Positions 46,974 to 57,838 of a stretch of DNA of 64,000 nt are shown here, piece by piece. The stretch lies in assembly GCF_003149025.1 (NCBI RefSeq), contig NZ_QGDV01000003.1, forward strand, positions 1 to 64,000. The letters are read 5' to 3'. The number at the start of each line of letters is the position of its first letter. The first letter of the stretch is position 1. Both the position numbers and the translations under genes were made by a program. The DNA comes from Rathayibacter iranicus NCPPB 2253 = VKM Ac-1602 (GTDB taxonomy: Bacteria; Actinomycetota; Actinomycetes; Actinomycetales; Microbacteriaceae). The notes below the pieces were generated by a model. The model worked only from the letters and a program-made list of their open reading frames with translations. It made no database searches and had not been told where the DNA came from.

Positions 46974-47585
46974 TCAGCCGCCGACGTGCGACCCGAAGCC
47001 CGCCTTGCCTGTGCCGCCGAAGCCCCCCGAGAGCGTCGCGCGCGAGCCGACGGTCGACCCCGCCGGCGCCTTCTGCACGACGTCCGGCTGCGTTGATCCG
47101 CGGGCCGCGAAGCCGCCGGACGGGACAGTCGCCCAATTCGACGCGCGGGTCGAGTTCCAGCGTGACGACGGGAAGATGATGGGGCCGAGCCAGAGGCCGC
47201 CGCTGTAGTGGCCGCGGTATTCATCGGTCGATTCGCAGATCTGCTCCGGATCATCACCTACCGGCTCGCCCTCGGCCTGAAGCTTCGCAATCTGTTCCCG
47301 AACATCCGCGAGACAGTCCTCCCGGCTCGAGTAGACGGGGCGCTCGGCGTTCTCGGGGATGACGTAGTCCTCCCCGTCCGCCCCCGTCGTGACCACGCCG
47401 TCCGTCTGCGGGTTCCCGGCCGCGAGCGCGACGGCCAGCCCGATCGCCCCGACCGCGACCGCGCCGCCGATCAGTAGTCCCCGTCGCCGTGCCGCGATCC
47501 CGCTGATGCCGACTCTGCCCGACCGGCGCCGGTCGGGCGAAGTGGCAGCGGTCTCGTCGGCAGCCGTGTGCTCGGGCTCGGTCAT
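46974..47585 (-). CDS. YgiB-like (DUF1190) membrane-anchored protein
   Basis: The protein has 203 residues. One N-terminal membrane helix (GLLIGGAVAVGAIGLAVALAAG, about 36-57) is followed by an external part with AERPVYSSREDCLADVREQ, ICESTDEYRGHYSGGLWLGPII and a Gly/Ser end GGFGGTGKAGFGSHVGG. This matches the YgiB layout and gene order, and its start overlaps the YgiC-like gene's stop by four bases. The function of the pair is unknown; they are thought to act at the cell envelope. Confidence 0.78.
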   Translation of the reverse strand: MTEPEHTAADETAATSPDRRRSGRVGISGIAARRRGLLIGGAVAVGAIGLAVALAAGNPQTDGVVTTGADGEDYVIPENAERPVYSSREDCLADVREQIAKLQAEGEPVGDDPEQICESTDEYRGHYSGGLWLGPIIFPSSRWNSTRASNWATVPSGGFAARGSTQPDVVQKAPAGSTVGSRATLSGGFGGTGKAGFGSHVGG

Positions 47586-48868
47586 TGCCTCTCCTCATTC
47601 TGCGGACGGTCGCCGCGGACCTCCTGCGCTCGGTGGTGCTCGGGTCGGCCGAACACGGGCGACCCGTCCGCGTTCTCGGGGCGCCCGCCCTCGATGAAGT
47701 GGGGGACGAATTCGGCAAGGTCGCCCGTGATCGGCCCGCTCGTCTCGCGCACGTCGATCCCGGCCGGAGTCTCGCCGACGATCCAACTGCCGATCACGAC
47801 CGTCTTCCCGTCGACTCGAGCGAGTTCCGCGCGGGCCTGATGGACGAAGCCCTCCTCGCCGTAGCCGCCGCCGTTCTGGGCGACGACGGTGCCGTCGGCG
47901 TCGAGGACCGTAACGTTCGCCCCCTCCCTGCCCAGGCGCGGCTTGCGCACGTGCGCCCGACCGACGAGCGGATGAGCGGAGGCGGGAAGCAGATTCGGGT
48001 GCCCGGGGAACATCTCCCACAGCACCACGAGCAATTGCTTGTTACTGAGCAGCAGCTTCCACGCAGGCTCCACCCATCGCGTGCGCTCACGCCGGTCCAG
48101 CAGGAGCCCGCCGAACTGCTCGCCGAGCATCCACTCCCACGGGTACAGCTTGAAGATGCGCCGGATCGGCTCGCCGTCGGCATCAACAAAGCCGACGCCG
48201 TCCAGTTCGTATCGGATGTCCTCCACGAAGATGAGCTTGGGGTCGAAGCCCGCCTGGGCGGCCGTCTCGGCCATGTAGGCCACCGTGTCTGCGTCCTCGA
48301 CAATGAGTTGGCCGTCTCCCGAGTCATGCAGCGACGCGAGGTGCAGCCGGGCGCCCTCATTAAGCTGCCAGCGCTCGAGCCGCAGGTGGCGCCACTGTTC
48401 AACGAGCCGCTCGTGCAGGCTGTTGAACTGGTCGGCGTCCGGCCCGCGGGTCTCGATGAGCCACTGCCACTGGGCGGCGGCCGTCTCGACCAGGGAGGTC
48501 GGGGTGTCGGCGTTGAATTCGAGCAGCGTGACCGTGTGGTCATTGTCGTAGGCGAGGTCGAAGCGTCCGTAGACAGTCGGGTCGTCCTCGTCCCAGGAGG
48601 TTCTGACCAGATCGTGGAAGCGCCCGGGGATGCCAAATTCGGCGAAGCGTCCCGTCCGCACGATGTGCTCGCACGCCTCCATGCAGAGGTCGAAAAGCTC
48701 CTGCGTGACGCGCTCGAACATCGTGATCTCGTCGCCGGTGAAGCCGTAGGCCGCCGACTCATTCCAGTAGGGCCGATCACCCTCGGACGGGAGGTCGTAG
48801 AAGCTGAAGCCGACCTCATCGCAGCGCGCTCGCCAGTTTGGTCGCGGGGTCAAGCTATATCTGCGCAT
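47582..48868 (-). CDS. Glutathionylspermidine synthase-like amide ligase (YgiC/YjfC type)
   Basis: The protein has 428 residues with an ATP-grasp ligase fold. LLEFNADTPTSLVETAAAQWQW, IFKLYPWEWMLGEQFGGLLLD, EPAWKLLLSNKQLLVVLWEMFPGHPNLLPA and VRKPRLGREGANVTVLD are family signatures. It lacks the N-terminal amidase part of E. coli Gss. The real substrate of stand-alone YgiC-type ligases is not known; glutathione is not the major thiol in actinobacteria. Confidence 0.88.
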   Translation of the reverse strand: MRRYSLTPRPNWRARCDEVGFSFYDLPSEGDRPYWNESAAYGFTGDEITMFERVTQELFDLCMEACEHIVRTGRFAEFGIPGRFHDLVRTSWDEDDPTVYGRFDLAYDNDHTVTLLEFNADTPTSLVETAAAQWQWLIETRGPDADQFNSLHERLVEQWRHLRLERWQLNEGARLHLASLHDSGDGQLIVEDADTVAYMAETAAQAGFDPKLIFVEDIRYELDGVGFVDADGEPIRRIFKLYPWEWMLGEQFGGLLLDRRERTRWVEPAWKLLLSNKQLLVVLWEMFPGHPNLLPASAHPLVGRAHVRKPRLGREGANVTVLDADGTVVAQNGGGYGEEGFVHQARAELARVDGKTVVIGSWIVGETPAGIDVRETSGPITGDLAEFVPHFIEGGRPENADGSPVFGRPEHHRAQEVRGDRPQNEERQ

Positions 48869-49743: not shown

Positions 49744-50295
49744 TCAGGCCAGCAAGCGAGGGAGTTGCAGTACCAGCCACGGGGAGAAGGCCCACGGGGT
49801 GACGCGCACGGCGGCCAGCGTCGCTGCAGGGTCGACCCACTCGTAGTCCATGACCTCGTCGGCCCGCGGCGAGAGAGCGTCGCGGCTTGCAAGGGTCGCG
49901 GTGTAGACGGGGCAGATCTCGTTCTCCACGATCCCGGAGGCGTCAACCGCCCGGTAGCGGAAGTCGGGCAGCGCTACTTCCAGGCCGCCCAGACGGGCCC
50001 CTAGCTCCTGCTCGGCGCGGCGCACCACAGCCTCCTCAATCCGCTCGCCCGGAGCGGGATGGCCGCAAAACGAGTTGGTCCACACGCCCGGCCAGGTGCG
50101 TTTCCCGAGCGCTCGCCGCGTCACGAGGAGCGCCCCATCGGGGGAGAAAACGTGGCAGGAGAACGCGAGATGCAGGGGAGTGGCCCTGTCGTGGACGGTC
50201 GCTTTATCAGCGACTCCGACGGCGATTCCCGTCTCATCGAGGAGGACCACCTCCTCAATCTGGTTCGTCTGCATGGCGATGCCTGGCGAAGTCAT
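49744..50295 (-). CDS. idi: Isopentenyl-diphosphate delta-isomerase (type 1, Nudix fold)
   Basis: The protein has 183 residues from ATG 50295; ATG 50274 is an alternative. It interconverts IPP and DMAPP and so primes carotenoid synthesis. Visible features are LLDETGIAVGVADKATVHDRATPLHLAFSCHVF, TWPGVWTNSFCGHPAPGE with the catalytic Cys, RRAEQELGARL, and YRAVDASGIVENEICPVYTA with the catalytic Glu region. It is divergent from crtE, 74 bases away, so the two share a control region. Confidence 0.93.
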   Translation of the reverse strand: MTSPGIAMQTNQIEEVVLLDETGIAVGVADKATVHDRATPLHLAFSCHVFSPDGALLVTRRALGKRTWPGVWTNSFCGHPAPGERIEEAVVRRAEQELGARLGGLEVALPDFRYRAVDASGIVENEICPVYTATLASRDALSPRADEVMDYEWVDPAATLAAVRVTPWAFSPWLVLQLPRLLA

Positions 50296-50369
50296 ACCTG
50301 CAAGTGAAGCACGCCGCAACACTTCAGTCGGCTTATCGTTCCCGAAGTCGCTTTGTTAGCCTTCTCCCC

Positions 50370-51440
50370 GTGGATACGTGCGACCCCGTGGTTCTGTCCC
50401 GGCTGAGGCAGTCGCACGTCGACGCTGTTCTGGACCGTTTCTTTTCACTAGCGAGGTCTCGGGCGGTCCGTCTCGGACCCCGCTACCTCACGCTCTGGCA
50501 GACCCTCGAGGCGAACACTCGCGGCGGCAAGCGCTTCCGGCCGCTGATGGTGATCTCGGCGTACGAGGCCCACGGCGGTCAGGATCCGGAGGCAGCCGCT
50601 CACCTCGGCGCGGCTTTCGAACTGCTGCACACCGCGCTGATCGTGCACGACGATGTGATCGACCGCGACTTTGTTCGTCGTGGTAGCCCCAACGTCTCCG
50701 GCAGCTACCGCGACGAGGCCACGACGGTCGGCCTCTCGATCCCGATCGCGGAGCACCGTGGCACGTCGGTCGCCGTGATCGCTGGCGACCTCGCGCTGAC
50801 CGGTGCGCACCGCCTCGTGGAGGGGGTCGGAGCGTCGGACGCCGTCCGCGCGCGGCTGCTCACCCTGCTCGATGAGGCGGTCTTCGCCTCCGCCGCGGGG
50901 GAGCTAGCCGATGTCGACTTCTCACTCATGCCCGGTATGCCGTCGGTCGACGAGGTCCTCGAAATGGAGCGACTGAAGACCGCGGTCTATTCGTTCGAGG
51001 CGCCGCTGCAGGCCGGGGCGATCCTCGCCGGGGCTCCTGATTCGGCGGTGGAGGCGCTCGGCGAGTTCGGGCGTTACATCGGCATCGCCTACCAGATCGT
51101 CGATGACCTGCTCGGCGTCTTCGGCTCGGAGGGGCAGACCGGCAAGACCACGCTTGGCGATCTGCGGGAGGGCAAGCGCACGGTGCTCATCGCACACGCA
51201 GCCGGGACCGGCTGCTGGATCGAGATCGAGAAGCTCATCGGGGACGAGCATCTCGCCCCGGAGACAGCCGAGCGGGTGCGTCGGATCCTCGAGGAGTGCG
51301 GGGCCCGCAGCTACGCCGAGGGACTCGCCGCCGAGTTCGCCGCCCGCGCCTGGGCCGCGCTCGAGACTCCGGCGGTAACGGAGGCCTTCCGCAACGAGGT
51401 CCGTCCGCTCGTCGCGAGCGTTGTCGGGCGTACCCGATGA
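50370..51440 (+). CDS. crtE: Geranylgeranyl diphosphate synthase CrtE (polyprenyl synthase)
   Basis: The protein has 356 residues from GTG 50370. It condenses IPP with allylic diphosphates to GGPP. The first Asp-rich motif is LIVHDDVIDRD (DDxxD-like) near 90-100, after GGKRFRPLMVISAYEAHGG. The second is YQIVDDLLGVFG. GKTTLGDLREGKRTVL supplies Lys/Arg for diphosphate binding. It starts the crt operon; crtBI begins 71 bases after its stop. Confidence 0.93.
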   Translation: MDTCDPVVLSRLRQSHVDAVLDRFFSLARSRAVRLGPRYLTLWQTLEANTRGGKRFRPLMVISAYEAHGGQDPEAAAHLGAAFELLHTALIVHDDVIDRDFVRRGSPNVSGSYRDEATTVGLSIPIAEHRGTSVAVIAGDLALTGAHRLVEGVGASDAVRARLLTLLDEAVFASAAGELADVDFSLMPGMPSVDEVLEMERLKTAVYSFEAPLQAGAILAGAPDSAVEALGEFGRYIGIAYQIVDDLLGVFGSEGQTGKTTLGDLREGKRTVLIAHAAGTGCWIEIEKLIGDEHLAPETAERVRRILEECGARSYAEGLAAEFAARAWAALETPAVTEAFRNEVRPLVASVVGRTR

Positions 51441-51510
51441 GCGCGGTGTGCCTCGCGCAGTCGGCCGCTACGATGCGGTCGGCCCGCTCTTACCCCCGTA
51501 CGGTGGCACG

Positions 51511-54060
51511 ATGAGCCGCCAAAGTGACCTGTACGATCGCGTTGCGCACGAGTCGTCGGCGCAGGTCATCCGCCGCTACTCCACCTCGTTTGGGCTGGCT
51601 ACTCGGCTGCTCGACGTGGGTGTCCGCGAGCGCATCGAGGATATCTATGCTCTGGTCCGCGTCGCCGACGAGATCGTTGACGGGGTGGCCGAGGAGGCAC
51701 GCCTCGACCGGGCGGCCGTCGAAGACTCGCTCGACGCCTTCGACGCCGACACCGAGCGTGCACTGGCCACCGGCTACAGCTCGAACCTGGTGATTCACGC
51801 GTTCGCGCGCACGGCCCGCGCGACAGGCTTCGGCACGGAGCTGACGCGCCCCTTCTTCGCGTCGATGCGCGCCGACCTGCGCGAGACGGAGCACACGCCC
51901 GAGTCGTTCCAGGCTTACGTGTACGGTTCGGCCGAGGTCGTCGGTCTGATGTGCCTGCACGTCTTCCTCGCCGCACCCGACGCGGGGTTCGTCTCGGCCG
52001 CCACTCGCGAGCGCCTGGTCGCTGGTGCCCGCCGCTTGGGCGCCGCGTTCCAAAAAGTCAACTTTCTCCGCGACCTCGCCGCCGACGTCGATGGTCTCGG
52101 TCGGAGCTACTTCCCTGGAGTCGACCCACGCGCCTTCTCGGAGCGTGACAAGGCCGCCCTGCTTGCCGACCTCGACGCCGATCTCGAGGCGGCCGGCACC
52201 ATCGTTCCCGAGCTGCCGCGTTCGAGCCGCCGGGCAGTGCTGCTGGCCCACTCTCTCTTCGCCGCTCTCGCCGACCGGATCCGCGCGACTCCCGCCGATG
52301 AACTCCTCCGCGCCCGCGTGAGCGTGCCGACGGCGACGAAGGCGGCGCTCGCCGCGAAGGCGGCCGTCTCGACCCTCGGCCCGCGTCTCGGCCCCGGCCC
52401 CGTTCGGGCCACCCGGTCGACGGCCGGGCCGCACCGCGCAGTCGTCATCGGTGGCGGGATTGGCGGCCTCGCCTCCGCCGCACTGCTCGCCCGCGACGGC
52501 TGGGACGTGACGCTACTCGAGGCTCGCGAGGTCGTCGGCGGACGTGCCGGTTTCTGGGAGCACGAGGGCTTCCGCTTCGACACCGGTCCCTCCTGGTATC
52601 TGATGCCGGAGGTCTTCGACCACTTCTTTCGCCTCATGGGCACCAGCGCCGAAGAACGCCTCAACCTGGTCACCCTCGATCCTGGTTACCGCGTCTATAG
52701 CGAGGGCGTCGAGGAGCCGATCGACGTGCTCGCCGACCTGGAGTCGAACCTCGCCCTCTTCGAGAGCATCGAGCCGGGTGCGGGCGAGCGGATGCGTGTC
52801 TACCTCGATTCGGCGCGTGACACCTACGAGACGGCGAAGCGCCGCTTCCTGTACACCAGCTTCTCGTCGTTCCTGCCCCTGTTGCGCCGCGACGTGCTCA
52901 GCCGCACGGCGACACTTGGCAGGCTGCTGCTGACTCCGCTGGATACTTTTGCCGCGACGGCCGTGACCGACAACCGGCTGCGCCAGATCCTCGGCTACCC
53001 CGCTGTTTTCCTGGGTTCCTCGCCCTACACCGCGCCGAGCATGTACCACCTGATGAGCCACCTCGATCTGGCCGACGGCGTTCTCTATCCGATGGGCGGA
53101 TTCACCACGCTGATCGGGGCGGTCGCCGACGTTGCCGAGGAGGCCGGGGTATGCATCCGCACATCGTCGCGCGCCACGCGCATCCTTACCACCCGAGCCC
53201 CGCGAGGTGCGCGGCGGGGCGCCGAGGTCGTCGGAGTCGAGTTCGACGGGCCGGAGGGGACGGAACGTGTGCCTGCTGACCTGGTCGTCAACGCCTCCGA
53301 CCTCTTCACCACCGAGCAGTCGCTGCTCCCGGACGAACTGCGCACCTTCCCGCCCGCCTATTGGGAGAAGCGAGAGTCGGGCCCTAGCGCCGTCCTGGTT
53401 CTTCTTGGCGTCCGCGGTGAGTTGCCGCAGCTCGAGCACCACACGCTGCTGTTCACCCGCGACTGGCGCGACAACTTCGCCAAGATCTTTGGCGAGAATC
53501 CGAGCGTCCCCGATCCCGCATCGATCTACGTCTGCCGTCCAAGCGCTACCGATCCGAGCGTTGCTCCGGAGGGACACGAGAACCTGTTCGTGCTCGTCCC
53601 GATCCCGGCCGACACCTCGATCGGGCACGGCGGAGTGGACGGCGCCGGCGATGAGCGCGTCGAGGCCATCGCCGACGCCGTGATCGAGCAGATCGCGACG
53701 TGGACGGGAGCGAGAGACCTCGCCGAGCGGATCGTCGTGCGCCGCACGATCGGTCCAGCCGACTTCGAGAAGGATCTTGGCGCGTGGCGCGGGACGATGC
53801 TCGGCCCCTCGCACGTCCTGTCGCAGAGCGCGTTCTTCCGTGCGGGAAATGTCAGCAAGCACGTCGACGGGCTGCTCTTCGCGGGCAGCTCGACGATCCC
53901 GGGCATCGGCCTGCCGATGTGCGTCATCAGCGCCGAAGTCATGCTCAAGCGGGTGCGCGGTGACGTCTCCACCGAGCCTCTCCCGGTGCGTGCGGCGCCG
54001 ACCGCTCCGGTGGCGCCGAGCGTCTCGCTCCCGCCCGCCTCCATGCCCCCGGCGGAGTAG
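51511..54060 (+). CDS. crtBI: Bifunctional phytoene synthase-phytoene desaturase fusion (CrtB-CrtI)
   Basis: The protein has 849 residues from ATG 51511 in one unbroken frame. Residues 1-290 are phytoene synthase: STSFGLATRLL, first Asp-rich motif VADEIVD (D53, D57), YVYGSAEVVGLMCLHVF, and second Asp-rich motif NFLRDLAADVDGLG (D188, D192) to RARVSVPTATKAALAAKA. A linker of about 18 residues (PRLGPGPVRATRSTAGPH) leads into phytoene desaturase: the FAD-binding VVIGGGIGGLASAALLARDG at 311-330, GGRAGFWEHEGFRFDTGPSWYLMPEVF, and FAGSSTIPGIGLPMCVISAEV near the end, followed by a Pro/Ala tail. It would carry out GGPP to phytoene to lycopene. In the bacterial loci I know these are two proteins. No internal stop or good internal start is seen at the junction. 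Confidence 0.92.
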   Translation: MSRQSDLYDRVAHESSAQVIRRYSTSFGLATRLLDVGVRERIEDIYALVRVADEIVDGVAEEARLDRAAVEDSLDAFDADTERALATGYSSNLVIHAFARTARATGFGTELTRPFFASMRADLRETEHTPESFQAYVYGSAEVVGLMCLHVFLAAPDAGFVSAATRERLVAGARRLGAAFQKVNFLRDLAADVDGLGRSYFPGVDPRAFSERDKAALLADLDADLEAAGTIVPELPRSSRRAVLLAHSLFAALADRIRATPADELLRARVSVPTATKAALAAKAAVSTLGPRLGPGPVRATRSTAGPHRAVVIGGGIGGLASAALLARDGWDVTLLEAREVVGGRAGFWEHEGFRFDTGPSWYLMPEVFDHFFRLMGTSAEERLNLVTLDPGYRVYSEGVEEPIDVLADLESNLALFESIEPGAGERMRVYLDSARDTYETAKRRFLYTSFSSFLPLLRRDVLSRTATLGRLLLTPLDTFAATAVTDNRLRQILGYPAVFLGSSPYTAPSMYHLMSHLDLADGVLYPMGGFTTLIGAVADVAEEAGVCIRTSSRATRILTTRAPRGARRGAEVVGVEFDGPEGTERVPADLVVNASDLFTTEQSLLPDELRTFPPAYWEKRESGPSAVLVLLGVRGELPQLEHHTLLFTRDWRDNFAKIFGENPSVPDPASIYVCRPSATDPSVAPEGHENLFVLVPIPADTSIGHGGVDGAGDERVEAIADAVIEQIATWTGARDLAERIVVRRTIGPADFEKDLGAWRGTMLGPSHVLSQSAFFRAGNVSKHVDGLLFAGSSTIPGIGLPMCVISAEVMLKRVRGDVSTEPLPVRAAPTAPVAPSVSLPPASMPPAE

Positions 54061-54062
54061 GC

Positions 54063-54392
54063 GTGGGCGTCCTCTACCTGCTCGCCCTTGCCGTCTCGAT
54101 CACCGGGATGGTCGTGCTCGACCGGCGCTTCCGGCTGTTCTTCTGGGCCGACGCCCGACGGGCCGCAATTGTCCTGCCGGCCGGGGTGGCGTTCTTCCTG
54201 GTCTGGGACCTCGTCGGGATCGGCCTCGGCGTCTTCTTTCGCGGCGAGACCTCCTATATGACGGGCATTCTGCTCGCGCCGGAGTTGCCGGTCGAGGAGG
54301 TCCTCTTCCTCACCCTGCTCTGCTACCTGACGATGGACGTGCACGGCTTCCTCGCGCGGCAGACAACCCGGCGGACGGGGGCGCGGGCGTGA
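54063..54392 (+). CDS. crtYe: Lycopene cyclase subunit CrtYe (C50-type heterodimer)
   Basis: The protein has 109 residues from GTG 54063, two bases after the crtBI stop. Three membrane helices; the ligand region LLAPELPVEEVLFLTLLCYLTMD carries the PxEE motif of heterodimeric cyclases. It works with CrtYf to cyclise flavuxanthin-like C50 intermediates at the membrane. The next gene starts inside its stop. Confidence 0.9.
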   Translation: MGVLYLLALAVSITGMVVLDRRFRLFFWADARRAAIVLPAGVAFFLVWDLVGIGLGVFFRGETSYMTGILLAPELPVEEVLFLTLLCYLTMDVHGFLARQTTRRTGARA

Positions 54393-54697
54393 CCTACCTC
54401 CTCCTTAACACTGTGTTTCTCGCGGTGGTGCTCGTGCTTCTCCTCGTCGCGGTGCGCCGCCGTCTCCTCCGACCCGCGGCACTGCTCGGTACGCTCGCGG
54501 TGGTGCTGGTGATGACAGCGATCTTCGACAACCTGATGATCGGGGTCGGCCTCTTAGTCGCCTACGACGACGACCTCATCTCGGGCATCCGGATCGGCGT
54601 CGCCCCCATCGAGGACTTCGCCTACGCGATCGCCGCCGCCGCCGCCCTTCCCGCGCTCTGGGTGCTCCTGCCCGCGCGTCGACGGAGCGAGCCGTGA
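54389..54697 (+). CDS. crtYf: Lycopene cyclase subunit CrtYf (C50-type heterodimer)
   Basis: The protein has 102 residues from GTG 54389 (GTGA overlap). Three helices, with FDNLMIGVGLLVAYDDDLISGIRIGVAPIEDFAYAIAAA, the matching PIEDF motif. Whether the ring formed is beta, gamma or epsilon cannot be read from sequence. Confidence 0.9.
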   Translation: MTYLLLNTVFLAVVLVLLLVAVRRRLLRPAALLGTLAVVLVMTAIFDNLMIGVGLLVAYDDDLISGIRIGVAPIEDFAYAIAAAAALPALWVLLPARRRSEP

Positions 54698-55557
54698 ACC
54701 GGCTGCGCGCGCTGTTCGTCTCGAGTCGCCCGCTGAGCTGGGTCAACACCGCCTACCCCTTCGCGGCGACGTACCTGCTGACCACCCGCGAGGTCGACGT
54801 CGCCTTCGTACTCGGCACCCTCTATTTCCTCATCCCCTACAACCTTGCGATGTACGGGATCAATGACGTCTTCGACTACGAGTCGGATTTGCGGAATCCG
54901 CGCAAGGGTGGGGTCGAGGGGGCCGTGCTCGACCGGAGCGAGCACCGCGCCACCCTGGTCGCGGCGGTAGCGACGAACGTCCCTTTCCTGATTGCGCTGG
55001 CGCTGCTGGGCTCGCCGGTGTCGTGGCTGGTGCTCACGATCAGCGTGTTCGCCGTGATCGCCTACAGCGCTCCTGGTCTGCGCTTCAAGGAGCGGCCGTT
55101 CGTCGACTCGCTGACCTCGGCGACCCACTTCGTCAGCCCCGCCGTCTATGGAATCGCCCTCGCTGACACTGTGGTCACCGGCCCGCTGGTGGCTCTGCTC
55201 GTCGCCTTTTTTCTCTGGGGGATCGCGAGCCACGCCTTCGGGGCGGTGCAGGACATCGTGGCCGACCGGGCGGGCGGTATCGGCTCGATCGCGACGGTGA
55301 TCGGAGCGAAGGCGACCACGCGTTTCGCCATCGTGGCCTACTCGGCGAGCGGAGTGCTCCTGCTGCTGTTGCCCTGGCCGGGGACGCTCGCGGCGCTCTT
55401 GGCCGTGCCGTACGCGGTGAGTATCTGGCCCTACCGCTCGCTCGGCGATGCCGAAGCGGAGCGCGCCAATGCGGGCTGGAAGCGCTTCCTGGTGCTGAAC
55501 TTCCTGACCGGGTTCTTGGTCACGCTGCTGCTGATCGTCTTCTGGCTCGCGACCTGA
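54694..55557 (+). CDS. crtEb: Lycopene elongase CrtEb (UbiA prenyltransferase)
   Basis: The protein has 287 residues from GTG 54694 (GTGA overlap) and about eight helices. It adds two C5 units to lycopene to give C50 skeletons. The Asp-rich motifs are NLAMYGINDVFDYESDLRNPRKGG and GAVQDIVADRAGGIGSIATVIG; YSAPGLRFKERPFVDSLTSATHF lies between. It closes the operon. Together the locus predicts a C50 pigment of the decaprenoxanthin / sarcinaxanthin / C.p.450 kind. Confidence 0.93.
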   Translation: MNRLRALFVSSRPLSWVNTAYPFAATYLLTTREVDVAFVLGTLYFLIPYNLAMYGINDVFDYESDLRNPRKGGVEGAVLDRSEHRATLVAAVATNVPFLIALALLGSPVSWLVLTISVFAVIAYSAPGLRFKERPFVDSLTSATHFVSPAVYGIALADTVVTGPLVALLVAFFLWGIASHAFGAVQDIVADRAGGIGSIATVIGAKATTRFAIVAYSASGVLLLLLPWPGTLAALLAVPYAVSIWPYRSLGDAEAERANAGWKRFLVLNFLTGFLVTLLLIVFWLAT

Positions 55558-57087: not shown

Positions 57088-57247
57088 CGCGCACCTCTTT
57101 TTCTGATCGTTGAGCGCAAACCGTCCATCGAGCGCAGACCGTTCGGCTGCGACGTTAGCTCACTTCGCGAACTCGGTCTCGTTCGCGGCGCGATGCGCCT
57201 CCACGATGGTGACAGTCCACCGACCCACGAGAACGGAAGTTAGATCT

Positions 57248-57838
57248 ATGAGTGTTGTAGCGATCATCGGAGACGGGAACGTCGGGGGTGCCCTCGCTGG
57301 CGCGGCGCGTCGAAGCGGTCACGATGTCCACCACGTCACGCGGAAGACGGAGCAGGCGGCGGCGGCGGGCACGCTGGCGGGCGCGGACCTGGTGGTTCTC
57401 GCCCTGCCCTATGAGGCTGCCCTCGAGATCGCGCCGGACCAGGTAGCGGCCCTCGCGGGGAAGATCGTCCTCGACGCCACCAATCCTCTTTCCCCGGACT
57501 TCAGCCGGCTTACGGTCGGCTTCAGCACGTCCGGCGGCGAGCAGATCGCGGCCCACCTTGGTCGGTCGAAGATCGTCAAAGCGCTGAATGCGGTGCTCGC
57601 TCCGAACCACGACCCCGCTGCCTTCGAGGCCGGCTCGCTCTTCGTGCCGGTGGCCGGAGACGATGACGAGGCCAAGTCCACGGCGATGCGCTTCCTCGTT
57701 TCCCTCGGGTTTGATGCGGTCGACGTTGGGCCGCTTGAGACCGCCCGCTATATCGAGCCGTTCACTGAGCTCCTGGTCCAGCTCGCATACTTCAAGGGCG
57801 AGGGGACCGCGATCGGCGTCTCCCTGCTTCGGGCCTGA
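57248..57838 (+). CDS. NADP/F420 dinucleotide-binding reductase-like protein
   Basis: The protein has 196 residues from ATG 57248. The Rossmann start MSVVAIIGDGNVGGALAGAARRSGHDVHHVTR and DLVVLALPYEAALEI, IVLDATNPLS, KIVKALNAV fit the F420H2:NADP oxidoreductase (Fno)-like / pyrroline-5-carboxylate reductase-like family. It is probably controlled by the divergent LysR. The true substrate is not known. Confidence 0.85.
   Translation: MSVVAIIGDGNVGGALAGAARRSGHDVHHVTRKTEQAAAAGTLAGADLVVLALPYEAALEIAPDQVAALAGKIVLDATNPLSPDFSRLTVGFSTSGGEQIAAHLGRSKIVKALNAVLAPNHDPAAFEAGSLFVPVAGDDDEAKSTAMRFLVSLGFDAVDVGPLETARYIEPFTELLVQLAYFKGEGTAIGVSLLRA

What the first reader, a model, noticed from the sequence alone, without database searches (positions are those of the whole stretch)
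51511..54060. Phytoene synthase and phytoene desaturase joined in one 849-codon gene
A complete CrtB (both Asp-rich motifs and its usual C-terminal RVSVP...KA helix) runs through an 18-residue Pro/Arg-rich linker into a complete CrtI (FAD fold through the PGIGxPM end). In the C50 clusters I know, crtB and crtI are separate, often overlapping genes. A fusion would deliver phytoene straight to the desaturase. There is no stop, frameshift or convincing internal start near 52378-52440.
Basis: partly seen in the sequence, partly recalled or inferred. Interest (0 to 1): 0.72.

Follow-up and report, generated by a model that had tools for sequence, protein, structure and literature searches.

The report
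Fused phytoene synthase and desaturase gene
Two neighbouring enzymes that make the red pigment lycopene are encoded here as one protein; the fusion is real and present in every genome of its genus that could be tested, but fusions of this kind have been reported before.

Summary
Window 51511-54060 (+) is one open frame of 849 codons: a complete phytoene synthase (CrtB), a short Ala/Pro/Arg-rich linker, a complete phytoene desaturase (CrtI). It lies in a C50-type carotenoid cluster. It is no sequencing slip: 13 of 15 genomes of the genus carry it in one frame; in the other two the contigs end inside the linker. The window has no start codon near the start of the CrtI part, so a separate CrtI is unlikely. 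Separate relatives mostly overlap by 4 bases (107 of 118 loci).

It is not unprecedented: a crtBI gene was named in Rathayibacter toxicus in 2017 (probably the same genus), and a reversed CrtIB in Verrucomicrobiota in 2023. Not found in my paper searches: crtB-crtI fusion also in Kocuria, in another genus of the order and in Clavibacter, with one origin for all rejected (window genus and Clavibacter may share one). In Clavibacter 16 of 18 genomes are in frame, yet all 18 keep the same ribosome site plus ATGA start, so linker length decides fused or separate. Direct hand-over of phytoene is plausible but untested.

The parts
51511..54060 (+). crtBI, 849 codons plus TAG
   Evidence: Open frame and translation; domains
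51511..52344 (+). CrtB domain (residues 1-278); DxxxD at 51667-51681 and 52072-52086
   Evidence: Pfam SQS_PSY 20-274; all four Asp present in the 17 fused and 24 separate CrtB rows aligned
52345..52425 (+). Linker, 27 codons, Ala/Pro/Arg-rich, no start codon in any frame
   Evidence: mean dN/dS 0.28 against 0.11 and 0.16 in the domains
52426..53970 (+). CrtI domain (residues 306-820); GxGxxG at 52450-52467, PGIGLPM at 53899-53919
   Evidence: NCBIfam TIGR02734 crtI_fam 310-828; motifs
53971..54057 (+). Variable Pro/Ala-rich C-terminal tail, 29 residues
   Evidence: 21-46 residues in 11 genomes of the genus, 6 residues in G009 and G012
51499..51513 (+). Conserved stretch ending in the crtBI start codon
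   Evidence: TACGGTGGCACGATG identical in 11 of 13 genomes of the genus, TACGGTG kept in the other two, in a spacer that otherwise varies; found once in the window
50370..51440 (+). crtE, polyprenyl (GGPP) synthase; the GTG start is my choice
   Evidence: Pfam polyprenyl_synt
54063..54392 (+). crtYe-like lycopene cyclase subunit, starts just after the crtBI stop
   Evidence: NCBIfam CarR_dom_SF 55.8 bits, cut-off 39.4; Pfam Lycopene_cyc 17 bits, below its cut-off of 27
54389..54697 (+). crtYf-like lycopene cyclase subunit, 4-base overlap with the gene before
   Evidence: Pfam Lycopene_cyc 39.5 bits, cut-off 27; overlap read
54694..55557 (+). crtEb-like UbiA prenyltransferase (lycopene elongase by inference), 4-base overlap with the gene before
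   Evidence: NCBIfam PRK13105.1 'prenyltransferase' 463.9 bits, cut-off 217; Pfam UbiA
49744..50322 (-). NUDIX protein, probably type I isopentenyl diphosphate isomerase
   Evidence: Pfam NUDIX; the identity as isomerase is inferred from the R. toxicus gene list

Best explanation
The gene encodes one bifunctional enzyme, CrtBI. Its N-terminal half condenses two GGPP (from the crtE product next door) to phytoene; its C-terminal FAD half desaturates phytoene to lycopene; the following genes crtYe, crtYf and crtEb then elongate and cyclise lycopene to a C50 carotenoid. The fusion arose when the usual crtB-crtI stop/start overlap was lost by a change of frame upstream of it, after which the crtI start was erased, so the tether is now obligatory in this genus. 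The likeliest benefit is a fixed 1:1 ratio and close placing of the two enzymes at the membrane. Shown: the gene, its domains and motifs, its conservation, the missing internal start. Inferred: activity, product, path of origin, benefit.
For: Complete domains and motifs. One frame in 13 of 15 genomes of the genus, the other two cut at contig ends in the linker. Both halves under purifying selection: mean dN/dS 0.11 (CrtB) and 0.16 (CrtI) over 55 pairs of 11 genomes. One match only in the window's own genome at E 0.001, the fused gene. No start codon near the junction in the window, no Shine-Dalgarno core in the linker of 13 of 13 genomes. Separate relatives: 107 of 118 loci examined end crtB in ATGA or GTGA. 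Clavibacter shows a possible intermediate state. Cluster of C50 type.
Against: No expression, protein or pigment data. NCBIfam's CrtB equivalogs, and its bifunctional desaturase model CrtID, are hit below their cut-offs, so product and number of desaturations are inferred. No structure could be made, so whether the two active sites face each other is unknown. The order of events (frame change first, loss of the start second) is read from another genus, Clavibacter, and need not have been the path here.
Confidence: 0.86

Rival explanations
1. The fusion is real but neutral: the two halves work independently, and joining them was an accident of overlapping genes that was never reversed. No transfer of phytoene between halves.
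For: The usual 4-base overlap means that a single frame change can join the genes; the Clavibacter linker varies in length (150-198 bases) and 2 of 18 genomes there are unfused; linker dN/dS is higher than that of the domains.
Against: Fused in all 13 testable genomes of the genus; fusion also occurs in three other groups and a single origin for all is rejected; in Clavibacter 9 of 11 distinct linker lengths are multiples of three (related genomes, not a formal test).
Confidence: 0.45
2. The linked halves pass phytoene on directly (channelling) because the synthase exit and the desaturase tunnel are held together at the membrane.
For: Consecutive enzymes of one pathway; fusion found in several lineages; PMC10284914 states, citing another paper, that fusing enzymes of this pathway raised its efficiency (passage; I could not read the cited paper).
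Against: No structure or kinetics; linker length differs between lineages (45-198 bases), which does not suit a precise geometry; phytoene is membrane-soluble (established knowledge, recalled).
Confidence: 0.3
3. The frame is fused but two proteins are made, by internal initiation or by cutting at the linker.
For: In Clavibacter an AGGAG...ATGA start is kept in 18 of 18 genomes, so there CrtI is probably also made alone. In 10 of 13 genomes of the window genus a GTG lies six codons into the CrtI domain.
Against: In the window no start codon of any frame near the junction and no Shine-Dalgarno core in the linker; the six-codon GTG is absent in the window and, by the motif next to it, would cut into the first FAD strand. 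Cutting by a protease was not testable.
Confidence: 0.08
4. Sequencing or assembly error that hides a stop and start.
For: Two genomes of the genus break in the linker, one of them with a frame change in crtI near the contig end, so the stretch may be hard to assemble.
Against: The same frame in 13 genomes of the genus, linker 81 bases in 11 and 45 in 2, all multiples of three.
Confidence: 0.01

Closest known systems
crtBI of Rathayibacter toxicus (AYW78_09710; PMC5552033, passages read)
   Same: Same order of names, crtBI; called bifunctional phytoene synthase/oxidoreductase; same cluster content (crtE, crtBI, crtYe, crtYf, crtEb and an isomerase gene); cluster proposed for the yellow pigment
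   Different: Only named in a gene list in the passages that I read; pigment chemistry undetermined there; I could not compare the sequence, and the genus of the window is inferred
CrtIB of Verrucomicrobiota (Ca. Pelagisphaera, PMC10284914, passages read)
   Same: Natural fusion of the same two enzymes in bacteria
   Different: Named in reverse order (desaturase first), in a retinal/rhodopsin cluster; [quoted passage not shown]
CrtIBY of thraustochytrids (PMC10016063, passages read; PMC5924542, search listing only)
   Same: Phytoene synthase and CrtI desaturase on one chain; said to give beta-carotene from one gene in yeast, and its knockout abolishes pigment (PMC10016063)
   Different: Order I-B-Y, three domains, a eukaryote, makes beta-carotene
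Separate crtB and crtI of Microbacteriaceae and other Actinomycetota
   Same: Same domains, 45-69% identical in the rows aligned
   Different: Two genes, in 107 of 118 loci examined with a 4-base stop/start overlap
Open crtB-crtI frame of Clavibacter
   Same: CrtB runs into CrtI in 16 of 18 genomes
   Different: Longer, length-variable linker and a fully kept internal ribosome site and start for CrtI

Membership tests
Phytoene synthase (CrtB; SQS_PSY) | Full-length SQS_PSY domain above cut-off | tested here: met
   117.7 bits, cut-off 26, profile 1-261 of 263
Phytoene synthase (CrtB; SQS_PSY) | Two Asp-rich motifs | tested here: met
   Asp 53, 57, 188, 192; present in the 17 fused and 24 separate CrtB rows aligned
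Phytoene synthase (CrtB; SQS_PSY) | NCBIfam CrtB equivalog model above cut-off | tested here: not met
   NF045686 51.6 of 550 bits, NF042419 36.4 of 480, NF045921 29.3 of 500; these models seem built for other lineages, so the name rests on domain, motifs and cluster
Phytoene synthase (CrtB; SQS_PSY) | Makes phytoene and not dehydrosqualene or squalene | not testable with these tools
   Inferred from cluster and relatives
Phytoene desaturase (CrtI family) | TIGR02734 crtI_fam above cut-off over its length | tested here: met
   547 bits, cut-off 238.1, profile 1-501 of 504
Phytoene desaturase (CrtI family) | FAD motif and C-terminal PGIG motif | tested here: met
   Residues 314-319 and 797-803; aligns with solved phytoene dehydrogenase 4dgk over residues 311-810
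Phytoene desaturase (CrtI family) | Four desaturations to lycopene | not testable with these tools
   Inferred from the downstream lycopene cyclase and elongase-like genes
Natural CrtB-CrtI fusion (crtBI) | Both complete domains in one frame | tested here: met
Natural CrtB-CrtI fusion (crtBI) | One polypeptide in the cell | not testable with these tools
   Needs proteomics; no start codon near the junction
C50 carotenoid cluster | crtE, crtB, crtI, two cyclase subunits and a UbiA lycopene elongase together | tested here: met
   crtYe passes the NCBIfam domain cut-off but not Pfam's; the elongase role of the UbiA protein is inferred

The most novel reading that the evidence does not exclude
Actinomycetota have joined crtB to crtI several times, in the order B-I in every case found here, by losing the stop of a 4-base overlap; Clavibacter is caught half-way, with linker length modulo three switching between a fused product plus free CrtI and the separate state, while the window's genus has gone all the way to an obligate fusion. 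Repetition would mean that tethering these two steps is selected.
Probability: 0.4. Interest if true: 0.5.

Novelty: new member of a known kind. Interest (0 to 1): 0.34.

Why it matters
A natural, compact GGPP-to-lycopene enzyme would be of use for pigment engineering. The comparison with Clavibacter and with separate relatives gives a natural series (overlap, open frame with kept start, obligate fusion) on which to test how overlapping operon genes become one protein and whether tethering two membrane enzymes brings any gain.

Tried and rejected
Sequencing error: rejected, the frame is shared by 13 genomes. Internal start for CrtI in the window: rejected as far as sequence shows. Reading fusion from search rows alone: given up. 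G080, G023 and G017 gave one long match but have an in-frame stop between crtB and crtI (separate), while many Clavibacter genomes gave a crtI-only or two-part match yet are fused; so only DNA-level frame tests are counted. One origin for all fusions: rejected by the AU test, but window genus plus Clavibacter as one clade is not rejected, and the test of Kocuria plus the g96 fusions was started and not finished. Plasmid searches, run partly in the hope of naming the window's genus, gave nothing decisive. A possible CrtIB fusion in Myxococcales proved to be a gene name, crtIb (passages). Paper searches; in their listings and in the passages read I saw no account of repeated B-I fusion in Actinomycetota. 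They cover only the held open-licence library. The passages of a Clavibacter review that I searched for carotenoid, crt and phytoene say nothing of these genes (PMC12089995).

Full report
What is there. The frame 51511-54060 (+) reads ATG to TAG without a stop, 849 residues, 91.4 kDa. Pfam finds SQS_PSY at 20-274 and Amino_oxidase at 317-808; NCBIfam finds the phytoene desaturase family TIGR02734 at 310-828 with 547 bits against a cut-off of 238.1. Both Asp-rich motifs of CrtB and the FAD and C-terminal motifs of CrtI are present. In alignment A1 (17 fused rows, 24 separate CrtB, 24 separate CrtI, a selection of the loci held) the residues checked are the same in all rows that cover them, but for I/V at 799 and L/V/I at 801; five CrtI rows do not reach the FAD motif. 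The best matches among solved structures are a gamma-carotene desaturase (4rep) and phytoene dehydrogenase (4dgk); the CrtB half finds CrtM (8is6) weakly. Three NCBIfam CrtB equivalogs and the bifunctional desaturase model CrtID are hit below their cut-offs, so 'phytoene synthase' and 'to lycopene' rest on domain, motifs, relatives and cluster.

Surroundings. Upstream is crtE (polyprenyl synthase), downstream two lycopene cyclase subunit genes and a UbiA prenyltransferase; the last three are linked by 4-base overlaps. A NUDIX gene lies upstream on the other strand. This is the make-up of a C50 carotenoid cluster; the product is not determined. In 11 of 13 genomes of the genus the 15 bases that end in the crtBI start codon are identical, and TACGGTG is kept in the other two, while the spacer before them varies; this supports ATG 51511 as the start.

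Is it an error? The genus set has 15 genomes, the window's own included. In 13 the gene is one frame; the TGA flagged in two of them is the gene's own stop just after the CrtI domain. In the other two, G004 and G014, contigs end inside the linker; the frame is open to the contig end on either side, but in G014 the CrtI part changes frame near the contig end. These two count neither way. The linker is 81 bases in 11 genomes and 45 in two. Mean dN/dS over 55 pairs of the 11 like-length genomes is 0.11 for CrtB, 0.28 for the linker and 0.16 for CrtI.

Is CrtI also made alone? In the window there is no start codon in any frame from about 90 bases before the CrtI domain to 15 bases into it; in none of the 13 genomes does the linker hold one of the four Shine-Dalgarno cores searched for. 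In 10 of 13, not in the window, a GTG lies six codons into the CrtI domain, next to the FAD motif. The window's next in-frame start is at residue 333, past the FAD motif. So a separate working CrtI is unlikely in the window; cutting after translation could not be tested.

Relatives. In the family search 338 of 398 genomes, in 73 of 85 genera, match at E 1e-30. By my count I tested the frame on DNA in 41 of these 73 genera: besides the window's genus and the Clavibacter genus, 0 of 51 loci from 39 genera are fused; the other 32 genera were not tested. The order search (396 genomes, E 1e-235) gave two further genomes, both of one genus, g96, both fused. In g96, 31 of 38 genomes match at E 1e-100; of 30 loci tested 3 are fused, 26 separate and 1 is cut by a contig end; one matching genome gave no locus. 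In the class search 37 of 394 genomes, the window included, match at E 1e-190; the 29 other loci given are all separate, 7 gave no locus, and some are genomes already counted above. A phylum search (246 genomes, E 1e-200) found only the window. These strict thresholds miss distant fusions and those with long linkers: one g96 fusion (G474) scored only 2.5e-165.

How separate relatives are built. Of 118 separate loci examined, crtB ends in ATGA in 73, GTGA in 34 and otherwise in 11. In 168 of 183 separate loci (some of them the same place fetched twice) crtI lies in the frame that such an overlap gives.

Clavibacter. Genus g35 is Clavibacter by 93% DNA identity over 5.5 kb to a named record. All 18 of its genomes hold AGGAGAGCGCCATGA at the CrtI start, in a stretch of about 79 bases without any difference among the 18, while the linker before it runs from 150 to 198 bases. 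In 16 genomes its length is a multiple of three and crtB runs into crtI; in 2 (152 and 167 bases) it is not, and crtB stops at the TGA inside that same ATGA. So there linker length alone decides. Nine of the eleven distinct lengths are multiples of three, which hints at selection for the open frame, but the genomes are related and this is no formal test. CrtI is probably also translated alone in Clavibacter (inference).

Origins. On a tree of 71 CrtB+CrtI rows without the linker (quick method; a selection of the loci, 8 of the 26 separate g96 loci among them), the window genus, Clavibacter, Kocuria and the three g96 fusions are each one group (SH-aLRT 100, 100, 100, 99), the g96 fusions sit among separate g96 genes, and at least 6 changes between fused and separate are needed, Clavibacter's own included. 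All fused rows plus the two unfused Clavibacter as one clade is rejected (p-AU 1.2e-36). Window genus plus Clavibacter as one clade is not rejected (p-AU 0.495), so these two may share one origin. The Kocuria plus g96 test did not finish. The tree cannot tell gain from loss.

What is known. PMC5552033 (R. toxicus genomes, 2017; passages read) lists crtEb, crtYf, crtYe, crtBI 'bifunctional phytoene synthase/oxidoreductase', crtE and an isomerase gene as the only candidate cluster for the yellow pigment. Since the window's genus is one of only two with this fusion among the 41 genera of the family tested, and the other is Clavibacter, the window is probably Rathayibacter; that is inference. [quoted passage not shown] its name gives the reverse order. 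PMC10016063 (passages) reports that CrtIBY is the sole carotenoid pathway of a thraustochytrid. So the finding is ordinary in kind. What I did not find in print, by the searches named in Tried and rejected, is the repeated B-I fusion in Actinomycetota and the Clavibacter half-way state.

Verdict. A real crtBI fusion, obligate as far as sequence shows, a new member of a known kind; channelling is unproven; the comparative series around it is the more interesting part.

Noticed in passing
Clavibacter loci L111-L113, L205-L219: Unchanged ribosome site and ATGA start of crtI inside an open crtB-crtI frame with a length-variable linker; 16 of 18 in frame, 2 separate.
   Followed up: yes
L147, L148, L204 (genus g96) and L032, L033 (Kocuria): Further crtB-crtI fusions outside the family, with Ala/Pro-rich (g96) or Arg-rich (Kocuria) linkers and no in-frame ATG near the junction.
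   Followed up: partly
window 53971-54057: Pro/Ala-rich C-terminal tail of CrtBI, variable in length in the genus and only 6 residues in G009 and G012.
   Followed up: partly
L143-L146 (G004, G014): In two fragmented genomes of the genus contigs end inside the crtBI linker, which suggests a stretch that is hard to assemble; a third fragmented genome (G013) reads through it.
   Followed up: partly
window 57110-57838: Protein with a weak match to NADPH-dependent F420 reductase (48.5 bits, cut-off 149.8).
   Followed up: no
window 46974-48868 (-): Glutathionylspermidine synthase-like protein (47582-48868), followed by a 203-aa open frame (46974-47585) without a Pfam match that overlaps its end by 4 bases.
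   Followed up: no
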